Shown here piece by piece: positions 8,838 through 58,498 of a stretch of DNA of 62,437 bases. The translations under genes were made by a program, and so were the position numbers. The notes under the pieces are model-generated. The model was not told the DNA's origin and did not search any database. It was given only the letters and a program-made list of their open reading frames with translations. Each line of letters opens with the position of its first letter. Position 1 is the first letter of the stretch. This stretch comes from a virus. Location of the stretch: the IMG/VR virus record IMGVR_UViG_3300021425_000035, positions 1-62,437 of that record. One strand, written 5' to 3'.

Positions 8838-9131
8838 TTAGAATGAGCCATAATCAATATAATCATCAGCAGGTGCAACTGGCTGACCTAAAGAGCTATC
8901 TGCTCTATCAACAACAACAAATGGCGGTACATATTCATGTTTACCTAATGTTTCATTCCATATCAAAACATATCCTTCTTGTCTATTAGAACTATCAATA
9001 TCATCGAGATCTGCGACAGTTCCTGTTATATCAATTTGCTGTAAGTCAACATCTACTAATCTTTGAGAAGTTGCTCTCGGCAAACCAACTTGAATATTGG
9101 AAGAATTGTGTAACGTTACTTGATATTTCAT
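8838..9131 (-). CDS. Small virion protein next to fibre genes (97 aa)
   Basis: 97 aa; contains NRQEGYVLIWNETLGKHEYVPPF (residues 49-71 region), a 'view/evaluate' segment common at the ends of phage fibre proteins. The ATG at 9131 overlaps the TGA of the 116-aa gene (ATGA), implying translational coupling. The acidic C-terminus is DDYIDYGSF. Function unknown; the position suggests a fibre or baseplate accessory. Confidence 0.65.
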   Translation of the reverse strand: MKYQVTLHNSSNIQVGLPRATSQRLVDVDLQQIDITGTVADLDDIDSSNRQEGYVLIWNETLGKHEYVPPFVVVDRADSSLGQPVAPADDYIDYGSF

Positions 9132-9478
9132 AGAACTGATGGTTTTACTGTTATTATACCTTCTATAACTTTTTCTGTTTTCCCTGAACCATTCTCTATA
9201 AAAACAGTATATACATATCGTCCAGGTTTAATATCTTGCGTTTTTGTTACTAAAACACCTCCAGAATTTGGCATTTGTAGTTTTATTAAACCTTCTAATG
9301 GTGTAACAATTTGTGGATTTAAACTATATTTAACTGTGGAAGTATAATTTTTTGCCATCTTAGCAGTAACTGTAATCCCAGTAAGATTCAAAAAATTTCC
9401 AAAAGCATCCCTTAGATTAAAAGAAACCTCCCAATCTTCTCCATTTTCTATAATTAAATTAATTGGTACTGCAGACAT
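9128..9478 (-). CDS. Ig-like/BppU-type beta protein (116 aa)
   Basis: Sequence INLIIENGEDWEVSFNLRDAFGNFLNLTGITVTAKM (residues 6-41) is the usual opening of the small Ig-like or BppU N-terminal-like beta domain found on phage tail and fibre proteins (family inference by pattern). The rest alternates strands (KPGRYVYTVFIENG, VIEGIITVKP) and has no catalytic motif. Translation starts 25 nt after a TATAAATA late box sitting inside the upstream terminator hairpin. It overlaps the next gene by 4 bp (ATGA). Confidence 0.7.
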   Translation of the reverse strand: MSAVPINLIIENGEDWEVSFNLRDAFGNFLNLTGITVTAKMAKNYTSTVKYSLNPQIVTPLEGLIKLQMPNSGGVLVTKTQDIKPGRYVYTVFIENGSGKTEKVIEGIITVKPSVL

Positions 9479-9490
9479 GCAAAAAGAAAA

Positions 9491-9518
9491 CCTCTTCTTA
9501 TATATTTATAAGAAGAGG
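9491..9518 (-). terminator. Strong terminator, 12-bp stem, likely bidirectional
   Basis: Perfect 12-bp stem (CCTCTTCTTATA and its complement) with a 4-nt loop. T-rich tracts flank it on both strands. It follows the 62-aa gene and contains a late promoter box. Confidence 0.85.
9503..9510 (-). promoter_or_regulatory. Late promoter box TATAAATA inside terminator hairpin
   Basis: Perfect TATAAATA lying across the loop and inner stem of the hairpin 9491-9518, 25 nt before the 116-aa gene. The same DNA can end one transcript and start the next. Confidence 0.7.
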
Positions 9519-9524
9519 TCTTTT

Positions 9525-9713
9525 TTATTCTGAAAGAATTGCTTCTTGAGAATTTTCTTCCTGATCTTCTAGCAATGATAAAGTTTCTAATCCACCTAAA
9601 AGTTTAGTTTTATATTCTTTTGCTTTGAGCAAATTTTCCTCTAGTTCTTTAATTTGTTTTTCAACTGAATCAAGTTGTTCAGTAAAATTTGTTTTTAATG
9701 ATGATGTATCCAT
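9525..9713 (-). CDS. Small coiled-coil protein (62 aa)
   Basis: 62 aa with a continuous helical segment TEQLDSVEKQIKELEENLLK (residues 11-30) and an acidic tail (LLEDQEENSQEAILSE). Such one-helix proteins are frequent between structural genes in T4-like cyanophages; function unknown. It has its own late box CTATAAATA (9740-9748), which overlaps the stop codon of the 4040-aa gene, and is followed at once by a strong terminator (9491-9518), so it may be a single-gene late transcript or the end of the giant-gene transcript. Confidence 0.65.
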   Translation of the reverse strand: MDTSSLKTNFTEQLDSVEKQIKELEENLLKAKEYKTKLLGGLETLSLLEDQEENSQEAILSE

Positions 9714-9739: not shown

Positions 9740-9748
9740 TATTTATAG
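9740..9748 (-). promoter_or_regulatory. T4-type late promoter box CTATAAATA
   Basis: Full CTATAAATA overlapping the TAA stop of the 4040-aa gene, 27 nt before the 62-aa gene. Confidence 0.75.
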
Positions 9749-24800: not shown

Positions 24801-27800
24801 AATGTAGCAATATTACCGAAGTTTGAGTTTGAGTTTGTAATAGATACATCAGATCCTGTAGCGGAAATAAAATGATCCGCATAACCAACAGCGAAAACAG
24901 ATACAACCTGCAGGAAAGAATCGTTACTACACTTAATGTGATAATGTCTCCAACCATCAAGATATGTAGAATCTACTTTAGTATGTCTTTGATCTGCATT
25001 TGTAACTACTTTAGTTCTGTCACTATAAGTAGGTTGATTCGTGGGATTATATAGATAAGCTCTGTCATCTCTCTGTAGTGAGATACCAGTGTATTGTGCA
25101 AGAACCATTGATTTGAAACCAGTGGCATCATCACCATTTGCATGTAAACCACCCATTCCATATACGGAACGTAGTGAACAGTTAAAGATATATGGAGAAG
25201 CGGAACTTACAGTATCAATAGAGGTTGGTGATGTTGCATCACCAACGATTCTGTTTTCTTCAATTCTTCGAGTAAGTTCATCTTCACTGATATCTGGATT
25301 AATTTGAGCATTATAAATTCTAACCGACTTTAGATAATACTCATCAAGTTCTTTTGCGTTAGCATACTTGAATGCAACTAGTCTGTGGTGACTACATGGG
25401 AAGCATCCAGTATCATCAATACCATTCTGGTTGCTATATGTAACAAGATTTCCAGATGAATTTACATATTGTGGAAGATTAATCGCATCTTTAATTGTAA
25501 GTTGCCAGAAATAAGAACCACCCGTTACCCTAAAGATAGCACTTTCTTGGTCTCTATCAAATCCATAAGGAACTCTTCTGATAGTAGAAGTTACACTGTC
25601 ATTTAGAATATCAACATATAATGAATATGAGGTCCAAATTGATGAAGCAACATCATTACACTGCGGAATAGATGAATCAAAAAGATCTCCAGATGCAAAT
25701 TTAGATTCTGAGTATGGGGTTTTTATTGAATAAAAAGTTCCTGCTTTAAATGTAAAACCACCATTTGTCGTTTGATTTGTATTAACAGCACTATCTAAAG
25801 TAGCAGATGTTGCAGCTCCATTTCCATCATAAACAACATCTAAAATTTGACGACTTCCAATAATTCCTGGACCTTCAACAGTAACGCCAGGAACAATACC
25901 TAGTTGTGCAGATGCAAAAGTAATTGTAGTACCACTTGTAGTTGCTTGATCCACAAAAGAACTGTTTCTCATTGCCATGATAGCCATATGAGAAACAATT
26001 CTAAGAGTTCTTACGGTATCTAATACTTCATTTGCTCCTTCAATCATTCCTTGATTAAGAACTGCTCCATCGTAATAGAATTTGGCAGTATCATAAATGC
26101 TTGAGTTGCCACCCCTCTGGAGATCTGCAACTAATGCATCTATATAATATCCAATATCTCTCTTACACTTCGCTTTGTTATAATCAGCATTTCCAGGAGT
26201 AAAATTATCTTGCAACCATCCAAATGCTTCTGACTGAATATAGTCTCTATTGTAAATGATTAAATTCCCTGCATCTTGATATCTATGAGGTGTTGCTGGA
26301 GTTGCTGGATCTGGAACATATTTTGGTCTTAGGATCGTTTTTCTTAAATCTAGGCCAATAATAGACGTACCTCTTGGCACTATTATGCCGCCTGAAGGAG
26401 GATTTATTTTATGTAAATTTGCAACTAGTTCTTGTTCTGTGTTGTAATTTGCTGCTGTATTGAAGAAACTAGCAAAGTCTGCATCTGTTTCTTGTTTTCC
26501 TGGTCTATTATCAATATCATAATCACCAGGATAAACAATAATTGTATAGTATTCAAATGCGTCAACACCAACTTCTTCTGCGATACCAGTACCAGTAGGT
26601 GCAATTGAATTCGCAGTAAATATAGTACCAGGATTATTATTTGTAGCACCAATAGTGGTCCAATTCGTGTTACCAGCAATAATAATCTTGTACTGTTTTC
26701 CAGTTATAATTTGTTCTGCTGGAACTTCGCCTAACTGACCTTTACCAGCAACATATGATTGCTTGGCAACCTCAAATAATGCTCTTTCAATACTTCTGAA
26801 TGGTTTGTTTAGACTTCTACCAGTTTCATCGAATGCGTCTGTGGCATATAGTTCATTCTTGCTAACATAAATTGTTCTTTCGTTGTTTGTAAGTTCAATA
26901 TTTGCTGAGTTTTTTGTTGCAAGACCTTGAGCAACAATCGTGCCATCAGCTCTTAGTAGAATTTTTGTATCTGGATCTCCGCCAGTAGTAAAATTAAGTC
27001 CAAAACCATCACGATAAAATCCAGTGTTATCTGAAGTATCAGAAGTATTTCTGAAATCAACAGAAACATCATTGATCGTTCCTGCAGCTATTGATTCATA
27101 ATTTGTTTTTAAATTAGCTGTATTTAAAGTATTTGTATCTGCATTATAATTTAAATCAGGATCGTATTGGATACCAGCAGATTCTCCACTACCATCTAAA
27201 ATAGCTAGTGGTTTATCTATGGTTTGATTTGATTGAGTTAAAATTACTTTTTGCGTTTCAGTTGCTGATAGATTAATTGAAGATGACGAAAGACTTAAAA
27301 CACTAAATCTAGCGTCTAAATTTCCGCTATCTATTTGAATAATATCTCCTACTTTATAACCATCTCCAGGAGAAGAGATAACTAACTCTGTTGGTAATGC
27401 TCCCCCTACTCCTCCAGACCACGAAACAATTAGTCCACTTCCAGATCCTGTAATAAAAGTAGTTGCTACATTAGTATCGGAAGCATTATAACCACTACCG
27501 CCACTATTATAATTTAATGTTTGTACTGGACCAGACCCGATTAACGTTTCTCTAACTTCATTTATAGCAGATACTAATGTAGTTTTTGATGTTGTTGCTA
27601 AATCTGGTAAATTTCCAATTTGATTTAATGCTGAACCTGCATTTGCTAAAGCAGTGTCTGCATCTGCTTGTGCTGCAGCTGCATCTTGAATTCCTTGGTC
27701 AGCTGTAACTTTTACTTCATTTACAGCTGGAATTAATTTAGATGCTGTCGTCGATAAATTATCAATATCTTGTATTTGCGTTACTACAAATGTTGCATCA

Positions 27801-38848: not shown

Positions 38849-38872
38849 AAATCTCCCCGTAAGGAGAGATTT
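38849..38872 (-). terminator. Terminator after gp8-like gene
   Basis: AAATCTC...GAGATTT stem followed on the minus strand by a run of about nine T. Lies 17 bp after the gp8-like stop. Confidence 0.75.
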
Positions 38873-53880: not shown

Positions 53881-53922
53881 AAAAGGGGGCAGGATTTGCC
53901 CCCTGTGAGTATAGCTAACTGT
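53853..53922 (+). repeat. 12-bp direct repeat flanking a terminator
   Basis: atagctaactgt occurs at 53853-53864 and 53911-53922, bracketing the terminator 53885-53903. Confidence 0.6.
53885..53903 (-). terminator. Terminator after 93-aa gene
   Basis: GGGGGCA...TGCCCCC 7-bp stem, then TTTTTTATTTCTC on the minus strand. Confidence 0.85.
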
Positions 53923-53924
53923 GC

Positions 53925-54206
53925 TCAATATCCGCCCTCTTCGATATACTTTAGGTCTCCTACTTTCCTGCCCTTTGCTATCACCGAACCGAGGGAGAAT
54001 CCAAGGAGATCGGGAGATTTAATAATTTCAGTAAGATATACTTTATAGCGATTTGTGGCTTCGAAAAGATATGCTTTCTCGTGGTTCGATTGGAATATGA
54101 TTTCGACGAAATTACCGTCGATCTCGATGTTGTGAATTGCGCTAGATTCGTCTACAGTGAACGTCCGATAGATGGGGGCGTTTGTGATTTCGAAGGAAAC
54201 AGACAT
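53925..54206 (-). CDS. KTSC-like small protein (93 aa)
   Basis: 93 aa; FTVDESSAIHNIEIDGNFVE, then IIFQSNHEKAYLFEA and LLGFSLGSVIAKGR. The 'SSAI..I..DG..VEI.F.S....Y.F' core resembles the KTSC fold (weak pattern match). The gene is moderately AT-rich but stands at the left edge of the GC-rich island, directly downstream of its last GC hairpin (54232-54251). A terminator (53885-53903) follows. Function unknown. Confidence 0.6.
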   Translation of the reverse strand: MSVSFEITNAPIYRTFTVDESSAIHNIEIDGNFVEIIFQSNHEKAYLFEATNRYKVYLTEIIKSPDLLGFSLGSVIAKGRKVGDLKYIEEGGY

Positions 54207-54231
54207 TTCGAGAAAAGTGTAGAGAATGGGT

Positions 54232-54251
54232 GGGGGGCTGTGGTGCCCCCC
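54232..54251 (-). terminator. GC hairpin after 98-aa gene
   Basis: GGGGGGC...GCCCCCC perfect 7-bp stem, 6-nt loop, no T tract. Left-most hairpin of the GC-rich island. Confidence 0.55.
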
Positions 54252-54272
54252 GTTGCTCGCTATCCTAGCAGA

Positions 54273-54569
54273 TCACAGGGCGCTGTTGCGATTCTGTGCC
54301 CACATGGCGAGGCGCTTGGTGCTAGCCTTGCTGAACACCCGATCGGTCTGGGTGATCGTGCCATCGGCATGGGTGACACGGTGACGGTTGGCAGCCTTGG
54401 CACACGCCTGCAGGGCACGGCGACCCTGGCGATCGGTCTGGGCAAGGTTCAGCAGGAGGGTGGCACGGTGCCCACCGATCACACGGGGGCGCTCGATCAG
54501 CAGACGGGCAGCGGTTTCGGCGTCACCGATCAGGGCAGCGAAACGGCTGGAGGGGATGATGGGGAGCAT
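54273..54569 (-). CDS. GC-rich hypothetical protein (98 aa)
   Basis: 98 aa, mostly Ala/Arg/Leu: SRFAALIGDAETAARLLIER, GGHRATLLLNLAQTDRQGRR, ACAKAANRHRVTHADGT. Helical and basic; no family recognised. GC-rich codons (GCC, ACC, CGC) contrast with the AT-rich phage backbone, pointing to foreign origin. Upstream is a candidate promoter TCGACA-16-TAGGAT (54618-54645), and downstream a 7-bp GC hairpin (54232-54251), so it looks like a one-gene transcription unit. Confidence 0.6.
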   Translation of the reverse strand: MLPIIPSSRFAALIGDAETAARLLIERPRVIGGHRATLLLNLAQTDRQGRRALQACAKAANRHRVTHADGTITQTDRVFSKASTKRLAMWAQNRNSAL

Positions 54570-54617
54570 CGGTCTGGGGCGGGGGGTGGTGGAGGTCTGT
54601 CCCCCTCGCTTGAACGT

Positions 54618-54645
54618 ATCCTATCAGATCGGTGGGGGGTGTCGA
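54618..54645 (-). promoter_or_regulatory. Candidate promoter TCGACA-16-TAGGAT (divergent module copy A)
   Basis: -35 TCGACA (54640-54645) and -10 TAGGAT (54618-54623), upstream of the 98-aa gene. A weak GGGG/CCCC hairpin lies just upstream at 54651-54677. Degenerate relative of the island module. Confidence 0.45.
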
Positions 54646-54820
54646 GGGTCTGGGGTCGAAATCGGGACAGTGCCCCAGGTGGCACACGGGGTCGGGGTCG
54701 CTGGCAGTGGGGGGCGCTCGCCGTGCTAGATTGGAGGTAGACCCTATGGTTGTTGCCTATGGGTTGGCAGGGGCGGTGGCGACGGTTGGCGTCTGCAGAG
54801 CTACCCCGCTCCTCGATCGG

Positions 54821-54866
54821 TTGTCTCTGGAATCCTAGCACAGAAAAGGGGGGCGGTGTGCCCCCC
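54821..54866 (-). promoter_or_regulatory. Degenerate hairpin-promoter module (copy B)
   Basis: TAGGATTCCAGAGACAACC (-10 at 54832-54837) directly after the GC hairpin with T tract. The -35 position reads CACACC, so the promoter is weak or decayed. No start codon follows for over 200 nt, so it has no obvious gene. Confidence 0.4.
54848..54866 (-). terminator. GC hairpin terminator after 61-aa gene
   Basis: GGGGGGC...GCCCCCC 7-bp stem followed by TTTTCTG on the minus strand; the only island hairpin with a T tract. Confidence 0.75.
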
Positions 54867-54874
54867 TGGTGGGG

Positions 54875-55060
54875 TCAGATCAGGTGATCTGCCAGATCCC
54901 AGCGGTGGATCGTGAAGCCAGGGTGGCGACGCTGGCAGGTGGCGAGAGCCTCAGCAGCGGTTGCTGCCCGAACGGAGATCACCTCGGGGAAGGGGTGGCA
55001 GTTGCCTTCCTGAACGCCGATGAACAGGAAGTGGCAGGAGCGGTCGGTAGCGATGTCCAT
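54875..55060 (-). CDS. GC-rich small hypothetical protein (61 aa)
   Basis: 61 aa: MDIATDRSCHFLFIGVQEGN then FPEVISVRAATAAEALATCQ and RRHPGFTIHRWDLADHLI. The 'I.V.A.TA.EAL..C.' segment is reminiscent of small phage proteins with a beta-alpha-beta fold, but no family is claimed. It has its own repeated promoter module (55088-55117) and is followed by a GC hairpin with a T tract (54848-54866). No Shine-Dalgarno precedes the ATG; the leader is the repeated GTCAACCACAGACACC sequence. Confidence 0.65.
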   Translation of the reverse strand: MDIATDRSCHFLFIGVQEGNCHPFPEVISVRAATAAEALATCQRRHPGFTIHRWDLADHLI

Positions 55061-55072
55061 GGTCGGGTGTCT

Positions 55073-55117
55073 GTGGTTGACTCTGGAATTCTATCATGGG
55101 AGGGGGGCTCTTGTGAA
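55073..55117 (-). promoter_or_regulatory. Island module copy C: TTCACA-18-TAGAAT plus leader
   Basis: -35 TTCACA (55112-55117) in the hairpin loop region, -10 TAGAAT (55088-55093), then the shared leader TCCAGAGTCAACCAC. Drives the 61-aa gene. Confidence 0.65.
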
Positions 55118-55126
55118 CCCCCCCCC
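55102..55126 (-). terminator. GC hairpin after 82-aa gene
   Basis: Six G pairing with a run of nine C across a loop that holds TTCACA; no T tract. Part of module C. Confidence 0.5.
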
Positions 55127-55134
55127 AGGTGGGG

Positions 55135-55383
55135 TCAGGGGCTGGGGTCGTACCCGTCCAGGATAGCCTCTACGATCTGCTCGTGAGTTTGCTGGCAGAG
55201 AATGCCTGCGATTGCGATCTCTTCAGCCCATTCCCAGGTGCCACCAGTGAGGAAGTCCAAGGGGAGAATGTAGGGGTACATCTTGTTAAACAGATCCTCG
55301 ATCTTACCCAGTTCATTGTAGAGATCCAAGGGGATCTCCCAGGCTTCGTCGATCTGCACGGTGTCGGTGAAGGCGTAGGTCAT
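55135..55383 (-). CDS. Acidic hypothetical protein (82 aa)
   Basis: 82 aa and acidic: MTYAFTDTVQIDEAWEIPLD, then LYNELGKIEDLFNKMYPYIL and EWAEEIAIAGILCQQTHEQI. Likely helical; no recognised domain. It is a single-gene unit with the repeated promoter module upstream (TTGCCA-18-TAGAAT, 55409-55438) and the next module's hairpin downstream. The ATG sits about 20 nt from the predicted transcription start with no strong Shine-Dalgarno. Confidence 0.65.
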   Translation of the reverse strand: MTYAFTDTVQIDEAWEIPLDLYNELGKIEDLFNKMYPYILPLDFLTGGTWEWAEEIAIAGILCQQTHEQIVEAILDGYDPSP

Positions 55384-55393
55384 GGGTGCCTGT

Positions 55394-55438
55394 GTGGTTG
55401 ACTCTGGAATTCTACAGGGTGGTGGGGGGTCTTGGCAA
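55394..55438 (-). promoter_or_regulatory. Island module copy D: TTGCCA-18-TAGAAT plus leader
   Basis: -35 TTGCCA (55433-55438) lies in the loop and first stem base of hairpin 55424-55444; -10 TAGAAT at 55409-55414; shared leader follows. Drives the 82-aa gene. Confidence 0.7.
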
Positions 55439-55444
55439 CCCCCC
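55424..55444 (-). terminator. GC hairpin after 56-aa gene
   Basis: GGGGGGT...ACCCCCC 7-bp stem with 7-nt loop; carries the -35 of module D. Confidence 0.55.
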
Positions 55445-55452
55445 TGGCTGGA

Positions 55453-55623
55453 TCAGTGCCGATCGCTCACGTTCCAGGTGGTGGTGGGGGCATTGGCAGG
55501 GAAGGGGAAGGGGCGACCCTCCTGGAATGCCTTACGGTTGGCAGCGGATCGTGCCTGCATTTGATCGTAGCGGGCGGTGTAGTCTGCCATGATGGCTGCG
55601 AGGTCGATCTTGGGGTTGGTCAT
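55453..55623 (-). CDS. Small hypothetical protein (56 aa)
   Basis: ATG at 55623 directly after the repeated leader. The protein is MTNPKIDLAAIMADYTARYD then QMQARSAANRKAFQEGRPFP and a FPANAPTTTWNVSDRH tail. Short helix plus proline-rich tail; no family recognised. It lies between two copies of the repeated hairpin-promoter module (55409-55444 downstream and 55648-55682 upstream) with no room for another gene, which supports it as the coding content of that cassette. Confidence 0.6.
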   Translation of the reverse strand: MTNPKIDLAAIMADYTARYDQMQARSAANRKAFQEGRPFPFPANAPTTTWNVSDRH

Positions 55624-55632
55624 GGTGCCTGT

Positions 55633-55676
55633 GTGGTTGACTCTGGAATTCTACAGGATGGGGGGCTGGTTGGCAA
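55633..55676 (-). promoter_or_regulatory. Island module copy E: TTGCCA-17-TAGAAT plus leader
   Basis: -35 TTGCCA (55671-55676) in the loop of the hairpin near 55660-55682; -10 TAGAAT at 55648-55653, ideal 17-bp spacing. Drives the 56-aa gene. Confidence 0.7.
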
Positions 55677-55682
55677 CCCCCC
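55660..55682 (-). terminator. GC hairpin after 81-aa gene
   Basis: GGGGGG...CCCCCC stem with inner GGTT/AACC pairing; carries the -35 of module E. Confidence 0.5.
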
Positions 55683-55691
55683 CAGGTTGGG

Positions 55692-55937
55692 TCAGACGGC
55701 GACCCAGTAGGTGTTCACGCACACATTAGGAACTGCCTTACCGATCTCTCGCATCTCCGCCATGATCCACTGATCCTGTGGGCGAGCAGATCGCCAACCC
55801 ATCACCTGGAAGTAGCAGTCCTCCAGGGTGGCGGGGTAGGCAACGGTGCTGACGATCCTACCGTTCCGAACCATCGCCACAGCGAACGGGTAGCGTGTGG
55901 GGGACAGGATGGTCTTGAGTGGGGTGGGGTCGGTCAT
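55692..55937 (-). CDS. GC-rich hypothetical protein (81 aa)
   Basis: 81 aa: RYPFAVAMVRNGRIVSTVAY then ATLEDCYFQVMGWRSARPQD and QWIMAEMREIGKAVPNVCV. A strand-helix pattern with no known motif. The same cassette layout as its neighbours: promoter TTGGCA-18-TAGAAT at 55966-55995 upstream, GC hairpin downstream. Start ATG at 55937, reached by the short conserved leader. Confidence 0.65.
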   Translation of the reverse strand: MTDPTPLKTILSPTRYPFAVAMVRNGRIVSTVAYPATLEDCYFQVMGWRSARPQDQWIMAEMREIGKAVPNVCVNTYWVAV

Positions 55938-55950
55938 CTGTCGGGTGTCT

Positions 55951-55995
55951 GTGGTTGACTCTGGAATTCTACAGCCAGTGGGGGGCTGTTGCCAA
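55951..55995 (-). promoter_or_regulatory. Island module copy F: TTGGCA-18-TAGAAT plus leader
   Basis: -35 TTGGCA (55990-55995) in the loop of hairpin 55980-56001; -10 TAGAAT at 55966-55971. Drives the 81-aa gene. Confidence 0.7.
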
Positions 55996-56001
55996 CCCCC
56001 C
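55980..56001 (-). terminator. GC hairpin after GP88-family gene
   Basis: GGGGGG...CCCCCC stem, loop carries TTGGCA (-35 of module F). Confidence 0.55.
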
Positions 56002-56014
56002 TGGTGTGCAGTGC

Positions 56015-56767
56015 TCAGACCGTCACAGCTTGGCTGGTGGTCGCCTTGCGATAGCCTCCGAACTGCCCAGCCTGGCGACGCTGGCGAATCGCCTTGCCCC
56101 AGTCGCTACCCTTGGGCTGGGTGCCATGCACTAGCAGGGCGAAGGGACGATCACCAAAGCAGTGGCTGTCGTCGTGATCAACCTCTAGCCCCAGGGCGTT
56201 AGCATCATCATCCGTCATCACCACTTTACTATAACGGGGGAACATTCCATCGTCGATCATGTAATCGAACTTACCACCATAGCTTGCCGTCATGTAGAAG
56301 TTAGAGGGCAATTCTTGAGTGATAAAGAATTCGAGAGATTTGCTGTAGCAGTAGAACTTAAGGTTAGGGTTCATCTGTGCAACTTTAACCCACGCTTGCA
56401 GATAGGCGAGGCTGAAGAAGTCGCCCGACTCGTGTATACGAACCAGCTTGGTATTGCGTGTCTTAAAGTGGTTCAACGCAACGCTAATCTGTTCAGCAGC
56501 GTGATCAATACCCACCTGCAGGTATTCCACAACAGTAGCCAGGTTGTTGGCTCGGTTGTAGAATGCTCCATCGTATTGCACCTCAGACGATGCAGCAAAG
56601 CATCGGAATTGCGTGTGCTCGGTGTCTTGAATAGAACGCTTGCCGTTAGCATCAACAACAGCGAAAGACTTACAGAAAAGGGCACCAGGGCAGGTCTTGC
56701 CTGCAGGCAGGTTGAAAATCAGGGTGCTGGTGCCCAGCTTGGCGTTGCCTTTGGAGAAGGTGAGCAT
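56015..56767 (-). CDS. GP88-family phage protein (250 aa)
   Basis: The pattern GNAKLGTSTLIFNLPAGKTC then PGALFC (C26, C32), RCFAAS (C56), RIHESGDFFSLAYLQAW and LKFYCYSKSLEFF matches the GP88 family named after mycobacteriophage gene 88, whose function is unknown. The three conserved cysteines may bind a metal or cluster (inference). I chose ATG 56767 over the longer frame to 56854 because the longer version would read through the repeated promoter and hairpin. Promoter TTGCAA-17-TAGAAT lies at 56793-56821. GC content is between the island and the backbone. Confidence 0.8.
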   Translation of the reverse strand: MLTFSKGNAKLGTSTLIFNLPAGKTCPGALFCKSFAVVDANGKRSIQDTEHTQFRCFAASSEVQYDGAFYNRANNLATVVEYLQVGIDHAAEQISVALNHFKTRNTKLVRIHESGDFFSLAYLQAWVKVAQMNPNLKFYCYSKSLEFFITQELPSNFYMTASYGGKFDYMIDDGMFPRYSKVVMTDDDANALGLEVDHDDSHCFGDRPFALLVHGTQPKGSDWGKAIRQRRQAGQFGGYRKATTSQAVTV

Positions 56768-56777
56768 GGCTCTGTCT

Positions 56778-56821
56778 GTGGTTGACTCTGGAATTCTACA
56801 GGATAGGTTGGCGGGTTGCAA
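56778..56821 (-). promoter_or_regulatory. Island module copy G: TTGCAA-17-TAGAAT plus leader
   Basis: -35 TTGCAA (56816-56821) abuts hairpin 56822-56843; -10 TAGAAT at 56793-56798. Drives the GP88-family gene and forms the right end of the module series. Confidence 0.7.
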
Positions 56822-56843
56822 GGGGCAGGATGGACACTGCCCC
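56822..56843 (-). terminator. GC hairpin after 63-aa gene
   Basis: GGGGCAG...CTGCCCC perfect 7-bp stem, 8-nt loop; directly abuts the -35 of module G. Confidence 0.6.
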
Positions 56844-56855
56844 GATTGGCACACC

Positions 56856-57047
56856 CTATAGTTCTACATTCCAGTGGCGATCGTTTGGTATAGTAACCCA
56901 AAAGAAGTTGCGACCATTGAGTGAACCAAGGTGAACACTATTGCCTTCGATTTTATCCACAATACATTCAGGATTGTGGTCCATAAGATTAGCAAACCTA
57001 TTCTTGGCTTTGCTAGATTTAGGTGCGACAAATGCTTTGGGTTTCAT
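56856..57047 (-). CDS. Small hypothetical protein (63 aa)
   Basis: 63 aa: MKPKAFVAPKSSKAKNRFAN, then LMDHNPECIVDKIEGNSVHL and GRNFFWVTIPNDRHWNVEL. Looks like a small beta protein with a basic head; unknown. Start chosen at ATG 57047 because an extended -10 promoter (TGCTATACT, 57071-57079) ends about 24 nt upstream, which excludes the longer frame starting at 57086. Terminated by the GC hairpin 56822-56843 that belongs to the island's first module. Confidence 0.65.
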   Translation of the reverse strand: MKPKAFVAPKSSKAKNRFANLMDHNPECIVDKIEGNSVHLGSLNGRNFFWVTIPNDRHWNVEL

Positions 57048-57316: not shown

Positions 57317-57347
57317 GTTGGTAATTAGAATAAAGAACTGAGTTTGT

Positions 57348-57458
57348 ATAAAGAATAAAACAACACTGTTTTATTCTTTATATCTTGGACTGTATATAAA
57401 GAATAGAACAACAGTTTCTATTCTTTATATTCTATACTACACTATTCTTGTGTAGTAT
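57348..57458. repeat. Three tandem AT-rich hairpins
   Basis: Hairpin 1: 15-bp perfect stem (57348-57362 / 57367-57381). Hairpin 2: 15-bp perfect stem (57394-57408 / 57416-57430). Hairpin 3: 9-bp stem (57434-57442 / 57450-57458). The first two share the AAAGAATARAAC core. They lie between the 41-aa and 59-aa genes; no coding content. Confidence 0.8.
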
Positions 57459-57567
57459 ACTCTATACTCTCTCCTATACTATAATCATCATAGTCATACT
57501 CTTCATTGTATTCTTTATAGTATTGTAGTTCTTGATTTACATACTCAAGAAATAGTTGATCTTCCAT
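57442..57567 (-). CDS. Very small acidic Tyr-rich protein (41 aa)
   Basis: MEDQLFLEYVNQELQYYKEY then NEEYDYDDYSIGESIEYTTQ E. Ten Tyr and twelve Asp/Glu in 41 residues; possibly a DNA-mimic or decoy type peptide (speculative). Promoter TTGACT-17-TAAATT lies upstream at 57597-57625. The stop codon falls in the loop of a 9-bp hairpin (57434-57458), so the message ends in structure. Confidence 0.55.
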   Translation of the reverse strand: MEDQLFLEYVNQELQYYKEYNEEYDYDDYSIGESIEYTTQE

Positions 57568-58054: not shown

Positions 58055-58179
58055 TTCCGAAGTGGTGAATTGTTGTAAGATTTGAAAATTGTAACCAGGA
58101 TAAAGAGGGTGGCAACCACCCCCACAAATCCTAGCATGGTGGTGGCATCACCACCGAAGCCTAAAGTGTCAACTGTCAT
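58051..58179 (-). CDS. Single-pass small membrane protein (42 aa)
   Basis: 42 aa: MTVDTLGFGGDATTMLGFVG then VVATLFILVTIFKSYNNSPL RK. Residues 14-33 form one clear hydrophobic segment flanked by a basic end (KSYNNSPLRK), so it should sit in the inner or thylakoid membrane (inference). It overlaps both neighbours by 4 bp (ATGA). Small membrane peptides of this kind occur in phage early regions; role unknown. Confidence 0.65.
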   Translation of the reverse strand: MTVDTLGFGGDATTMLGFVGVVATLFILVTIFKSYNNSPLRK

Positions 58180-58480: not shown

Positions 58481-58498
58481 GGGAGCATTTCTGCTCCC
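58481..58498 (-). terminator. Terminator after 54-aa charged protein gene
   Basis: GGGAGCA-GAAA-TGCTCCC, stable tetraloop, then six T on the minus strand. Confidence 0.9.

What the first reader, a model, noticed from the sequence alone, without database searches (positions are those of the whole stretch)
9491..9518. Late promoter nested in a terminator stem-loop
The perfect late box TATAAATA (9503-9510) spans the loop of a 12-bp terminator hairpin between the 62-aa and 116-aa genes. This is the same design as in the GC-rich island, but with a late promoter and unrelated sequence, suggesting that fusing terminator and promoter is a general trick of this phage.
Basis: seen in the sequence. Interest (0 to 1): 0.7.

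Follow-up and report, generated by a model that had tools for sequence, protein, structure and literature searches.

The report
Late promoter inside a terminator hairpin
In this marine T4-like cyanophage the signal that ends transcription of one small gene and the signal that starts late transcription of the next are folded into the same 28 bases, and the same fused signal, with different stem sequences but the same promoter box, recurs in many related phages, so it looks like a selected device and not a coincidence.

Summary
On the minus strand TATAAATA (9510-9503) lies in a 12-bp perfect hairpin (9518-9491) followed by TTTTCTTTTT, between the 62-aa and 116-aa genes. Upstream of 116-aa orthologs, nested hairpins occur in at least 3-4 clades; 17 of 57 box-bearing representatives are nested against 0.9 expected. 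Stems carry compensatory changes around an invariant box. All 12 cultured cyanophage junctions examined (S-PM2, Syn1, S-RSM4 and others) have it between the homologue of the 62-aa gene and gene 13. Unexpectedly, the element follows the upstream gene: every nested 116-aa representative has the phrog_580 gene upstream (17/17 against 15/58). A second, covarying family separates a PqqA-like peptide gene from gene 5. Best reading: the intrinsic terminator of a small late unit, with the next gene's gp55-type late promoter in its loop. Late RNA starts in the 3' arm and cannot form the hairpin. It is not a general trick of this phage: the window has one nested and one tandem case, and several close relatives are tandem or unfused. 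No RNA ends were mapped. Closest known: T4 e/I-TevII hairpins and PeSL cassettes.

The parts
9503..9510 (-). T4-type late promoter box TATAAATA; predicted +1 near 9497
   Evidence: position 24 nt before the ATG; box conserved in most orthologues
9491..9518 (-). Perfect 12-bp hairpin CCUCUUCUUAUA-AAUA-UAUAAGAAGAGG, extendable to about 9487-9522
   Evidence: compensatory changes in relatives
9481..9490 (-). U-tract UUUUCUUUUU directly after the stem (intrinsic-terminator feature)
   Evidence: a T-rich tract follows all 16 gene-5 hairpins that were chosen on pairing alone
9491..9497 (-). GAAGAGG in the 3' arm, the only Shine-Dalgarno-like sequence before the ATG, 12 nt away
9525..9713 (-). 62-aa gene, phrog_580 family, unknown function; small late unit ended by the hairpin
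   Evidence: upstream partner of every nested 116-aa representative
9740..9747 (-). Late box TATAAATA for the 62-aa gene
   Evidence: a late box in the same place in 11 of 12 cultured phages
9128..9478 (-). 116-aa gene driven by the nested promoter; phrog_1084 / L-shaped tail fibre assembly family
38849..38872 (-). Comparison: second intrinsic terminator of the late region, tandem with (not nested on) late box 38833-38826 before the 2684-aa gene

Best explanation
It is a composite late-gene punctuation mark. RNA polymerase that has transcribed the small 62-aa (phrog_580) gene from its own late promoter (9740-9747) makes both arms of the hairpin and the U-tract and stops before the 116-aa gene. 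The gp55-type late box of the next gene lies at the apex of the same hairpin, so new late transcripts start about 6 nt past the box, inside the 3' arm (near 9497). They lack the 5' arm, cannot fold the hairpin, and therefore neither terminate nor hide their start region. One 28-nt sequence thus ends one late unit and starts the next, letting two adjacent late genes be expressed independently. Shown here: the anatomy, strand-specific box, U-tract, recurrence, compensatory changes, and link to the upstream gene. Inferred: that termination and initiation happen there, the +1 site, and the purpose.
For: Hairpin far beyond chance. In unbiased late regions the box is strongly sense-strand specific: ATAAATA 163 against TATTTAT 1 in gene junctions. 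Nested 17/57 against 0.94 expected for 116-aa orthologues and 12/12 against 0.6 in cultured cyanophages. Compensatory pairs: 116-aa set 6 double-change cells against 2.2 shuffled, 94% paired against at most 68% when slid; gene-5 set 12 against 3.7, 95.8% against at most 56%. U-tract directly after the stem in 16/16 gene-5 hairpins chosen without it. The small upstream gene has its own late box and is present upstream of 17/17 nested against 15/58 other representatives. Same element before gene 13 in S-PM2, where the downstream gene differs but the upstream gene is the same family. Where not nested, two close relatives keep a separate GC-rich terminator just upstream of the box (L120, L121).
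Against: No RNA 5' or 3' end data. The window stem has few G-C pairs for a terminator (4 of 16). Most orthologues have the box without a terminator. A crude placement null did not show that terminators and boxes overlap more often than expected in short junctions, so compact packing may explain part of it. Counts are of related sequences, with perhaps 4-6 independent lineages. The 14-sequence CTAAATA set shows little double-sided variation.
Confidence: 0.72

Rival explanations
1. T4 gene e-type translational switch: the hairpin hides the ribosome-binding site on read-through RNA, and only late RNA that starts inside it is translated. Termination is secondary or absent.
For: Same box-at-apex layout in T4 e and I-TevII, recovered by the same scan and described in PMC3014915 and PMC2988022. 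The 3' arm holds GAAGAGG here. In gene 5 the G-run is a constant 8-10 nt from the ATG.
Against: Spacing from the 3'-arm G-run to the ATG is 7-19 nt in the 116-aa set and 13-20 nt in gene 13, too loose for a conserved Shine-Dalgarno function, while the U-tract abuts the stem. The T4 hairpins lack the U-tract. The element follows the upstream gene, not the downstream one.
Confidence: 0.2
2. Mere packing: a terminator and a late promoter forced into a 45-55 nt gap overlap by chance, without functional coupling.
For: Gaps are short, tandem arrangements also exist, and a random-placement null gives as much overlap.
Against: Box centred within 2 nt of the apex in all four nested cases of the unbiased survey; far more nested hairpins than flank shuffling gives; stems covary while the box stays.
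Confidence: 0.15
3. The palindrome acts as DNA (cruciform or recombination site, like the PeSL shuffling cassettes) and not as RNA.
For: The same kind of element sits before different genes (116-aa gene, gene 13, gene 5), as exchange cassettes would.
Against: G-U pairs are tolerated, the U-tract is on one side in most relatives, and the stem sequence is not shared between sites as homologous recombination would need.
Confidence: 0.05

Closest known systems
T4 late-promoter hairpins of genes e, soc, 49, I-TevI/II, segB and Aeh1 mobE (PMC3014915, PMC2988022)
   Same: Late box in the 5' arm/apex of a hairpin just before a start codon; late RNA starts inside and loses the 5' arm. T4 e and I-TevII were found by the same scan.
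   Different: Those act by hiding the RBS on early transcripts and have no U-tract; here a U-tract follows, spacing to the ATG varies, and both neighbours have late boxes.
PeSL composite promoter-terminator cassettes of T4-like phages (Arbiol 2010; Comeau 2014; cited in PMC4503421; originals not held, details from memory)
   Same: Terminator and promoter combined in one small intergenic element of T4-like phages.
   Different: PeSLs use early promoters beside a stem-loop in hyperplastic regions; here a late gp55-type box is inside the stem-loop, in the structural-gene region.
T4-type late promoter NATAAATA / Aeh1-type CTAAATA (PMC2984593, PMC1524935)
   Same: The box itself.
   Different: Described there as a free-standing -10 element; the nested context is extra.

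Membership tests
T4-type (gp55) late promoter | TATAAATA/NATAAATA box correctly placed before a late gene | tested here: met
   Perfect box 24 nt before the ATG of a structural-region gene; sense-strand bias 163:1 in related late regions
T4-type (gp55) late promoter | Mapped RNA 5' end about 6 nt downstream, dependent on gp55 | not testable with these tools
   no transcript data
Intrinsic terminator | Stable stem-loop directly followed by a U-tract | tested here: met
Intrinsic terminator | Transcripts end at the U-tract | not testable with these tools
   no transcript data
T4 gene e-type RBS-sequestering hairpin | Shine-Dalgarno or AUG paired in the hairpin at working distance from the start codon | tested here: inconclusive
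   GAAGAGG in the 3' arm but 12 nt from the AUG; spacing 7-20 nt across relatives, constant (8-10 nt) only in gene 5
T4 gene e-type RBS-sequestering hairpin | An early transcript reads through the gene | not tested
   no transcript data; only weak sigma-70-like matches in the region
PeSL cassette | Early (sigma-70 type) promoter joined to the stem-loop | tested here: not met
   the promoter is the late box; no sigma-70-like match was reported inside the hairpin

The most novel reading that the evidence does not exclude
A conserved composite element of cyanomyoviruses in which termination feeds re-initiation: polymerase stopped at the U-tract stands over the overlapping late promoter and is re-used there with the gp55/gp45 late machinery, so output of the small upstream gene and of the next structural gene is coupled through one nested sequence.
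Probability: 0.12. Interest if true: 0.85.

Novelty: new variant of a known kind. Interest (0 to 1): 0.58.

Why it matters
It shows that T4-like cyanophages repeatedly carry a 30-nt element that looks like the terminator of one late gene and the promoter of the next, conserved in cultured phages such as S-PM2, Syn1 and S-RSM4 and therefore testable. It offers a way to insulate neighbouring late genes in compact genomes, ties it to two small genes (phrog_580 and a PqqA-like peptide gene) whose separate expression seems to matter, and warns that terminator and promoter predictions that exclude each other will miss such sites.

Tried and rejected
Megablast of the region against phages: no match. 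The first terminator detector missed the window hairpin because the stem ran into the U-tract; rewritten. Random-placement null gives no excess of overlap; kept as evidence against. First structure for the CTAAATA set was out of register by two; corrected. Rejected: the antisense (+ strand) terminator as the main function, since no convincing + strand genes flank it and the 5' A-tract is not conserved. PeSL papers and the S-RSM4 genome paper are not held, so 'not described before' rests on the searched library and memory. My automatic classifier called L518 'box only', though its fold is nested.

Full report
What is there. The window (a 62-kb virus record) carries the structural genes of a T4-like cyanophage on the minus strand; its gp6 is 63-72% identical to those of S-PM2 and Sf-FR1. 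Between the 62-aa gene (9713-9525) and the 116-aa gene (9478-9128) the minus-strand RNA reads GACCUCUUCUUAUAAAUAUAUAAGAAGAGGUUUUCUUUUUGCAUG. The late box TATAAATA (9510-9503) has its first half in the 5' arm and its second half as the loop. The fold is far stronger than shuffles (z -6.3) and is the best terminator-like site of the region. Three minus-strand TATAAATA copies stand about 25 nt before three ATGs of this region, including one for the 62-aa gene itself.

Relatives of the 116-aa junction. Protein-guided searches gave about 160 orthologous junctions plus cultured phages. The box is present in most; the hairpin is not. Of 75 representatives, 17 are nested, 3 tandem, 37 box only and 18 without a box. 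Nested ones fall into at least three and probably four clades: the window with L116; L517 (and L518 by eye); L076/L529/L539/L549/L172; and nine that use the Aeh1-type box CTAAATA (PMC1524935). In the window's own seven-member clade, the window and L116 are nested with different stems, L120 and L121 have a GC-rich terminator separate from the box, and L119, L122 and L123 were scored box only. With the box fixed and the flanks shuffled, 0.94 nested sites are expected against 17.

Covariation. In the six nested junctions in the window's register, 4 of 14 pairs change on both sides, 94% of cells pair (at most 68% when slid), and the covariation score is 0.26 against 0.11 shuffled. A second family, found by pattern and then collected by protein, lies before gene 5 (baseplate hub, phrog_430): 11 distinct sequences, TATAAATACT invariant, 12 double-change cells against 3.7, 95.8% paired against at most 56% when slid. 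Its hairpins were picked on pairing alone, yet all 16 are followed by a T-rich tract.

The upstream gene is the key. The ORF just before every nested 116-aa junction belongs to the 62-aa family (17/17 against 15/58 for the rest, Fisher 2e-8, rows not independent). In S-PM2 the same small gene (S-PM2p095, phrog_580) lies before gene 13 instead, and there too a nested hairpin follows. I then took 11 more cultured cyanophages by the small gene alone: all 12 junctions to gene 13 are nested, with two unrelated stem/box versions (GATAAATA, CCTAAATA), against 0.6 expected. A late box also precedes the small gene in 11 of 12. The gene-5 family follows a 23-24-aa PqqA-like peptide gene where this was read (Pfam PF08042, E 1e-11). 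So the nested element is the 3' end of a small, apparently separately transcribed late gene, merged with the next gene's promoter.

Mechanism. Late polymerase from the small gene makes the whole hairpin and the U-tract and should stop; late polymerase that starts at the nested box makes only the 3' arm onward (predicted start near 9497), which no longer folds. The T4 gene e-type alternative, hiding the ribosome-binding site, uses the same geometry (T4 e and I-TevII were recovered; PMC3014915, PMC2988022). But the distance from the G-rich 3' arm to the ATG varies from 7 to 20 nt in the 116-aa and gene-13 sets and is constant (8-10 nt) only in gene 5, and the T4 hairpins have no U-tract. I therefore rank termination first, with RBS hiding possible as an extra layer, most likely in gene 5.

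Limits. No transcript ends are available. A placement null in short junctions shows no excess of overlap as such. Sequences counted are related. Among about 140 late-box gene starts of T4 and 15 other isolates scanned, nested hairpins of any kind are few, so the design is local to certain junctions. In the window it occurs once; the other late terminator (38872-38849) is in tandem with its box.

Noticed in passing
L440, L437 and related loci, upstream of the gene-5 homologue: A 23-24-aa PqqA-like peptide gene (MKWTTPSYTEMRFGFEVTMYILNK, Pfam PF08042 E 1e-11) sits directly before gene 5 in T4-like marine phages.
   Followed up: partly
L202 (Synechococcus phage S-SRM01) about 26864-26920: A 20-bp perfect hairpin with two late boxes before a recombination endonuclease VII gene, with no U-tract and the start codon in the 3' arm: looks like the T4 I-TevI type of translational lock.
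   Followed up: no
window 53884-53904, 54847-54867, 58105-58123, 58481-58498: GC-rich intrinsic-terminator-like hairpins on the minus strand; the stretch 54001-57000 is 54-60% GC against about 33% for the rest and looks foreign. No late box was found in these hairpins.
   Followed up: partly
window 57347-57466: A cluster of nested perfect inverted repeats (TATAAAGAATAAAACA / TGTTTTATTCTTTATA and relatives), several mutually complementary, unexplained.
   Followed up: no
L340, L342, L343, L351, L387: A family of terminator-like hairpins (CCCCG..TATTTATA..CGGGGTTTT) 6-8 nt before ATGs of about 500-540-aa genes, without the sense late box; perhaps another nested control element.
   Followed up: no
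L145, L159, L161, L187 upstream of the 116-aa orthologue: CTAAATA, the late box described for Aeromonas phage Aeh1, stands where relatives have CATAAATA, so the variant seems to be used in marine T4-like phages too.
   Followed up: partly
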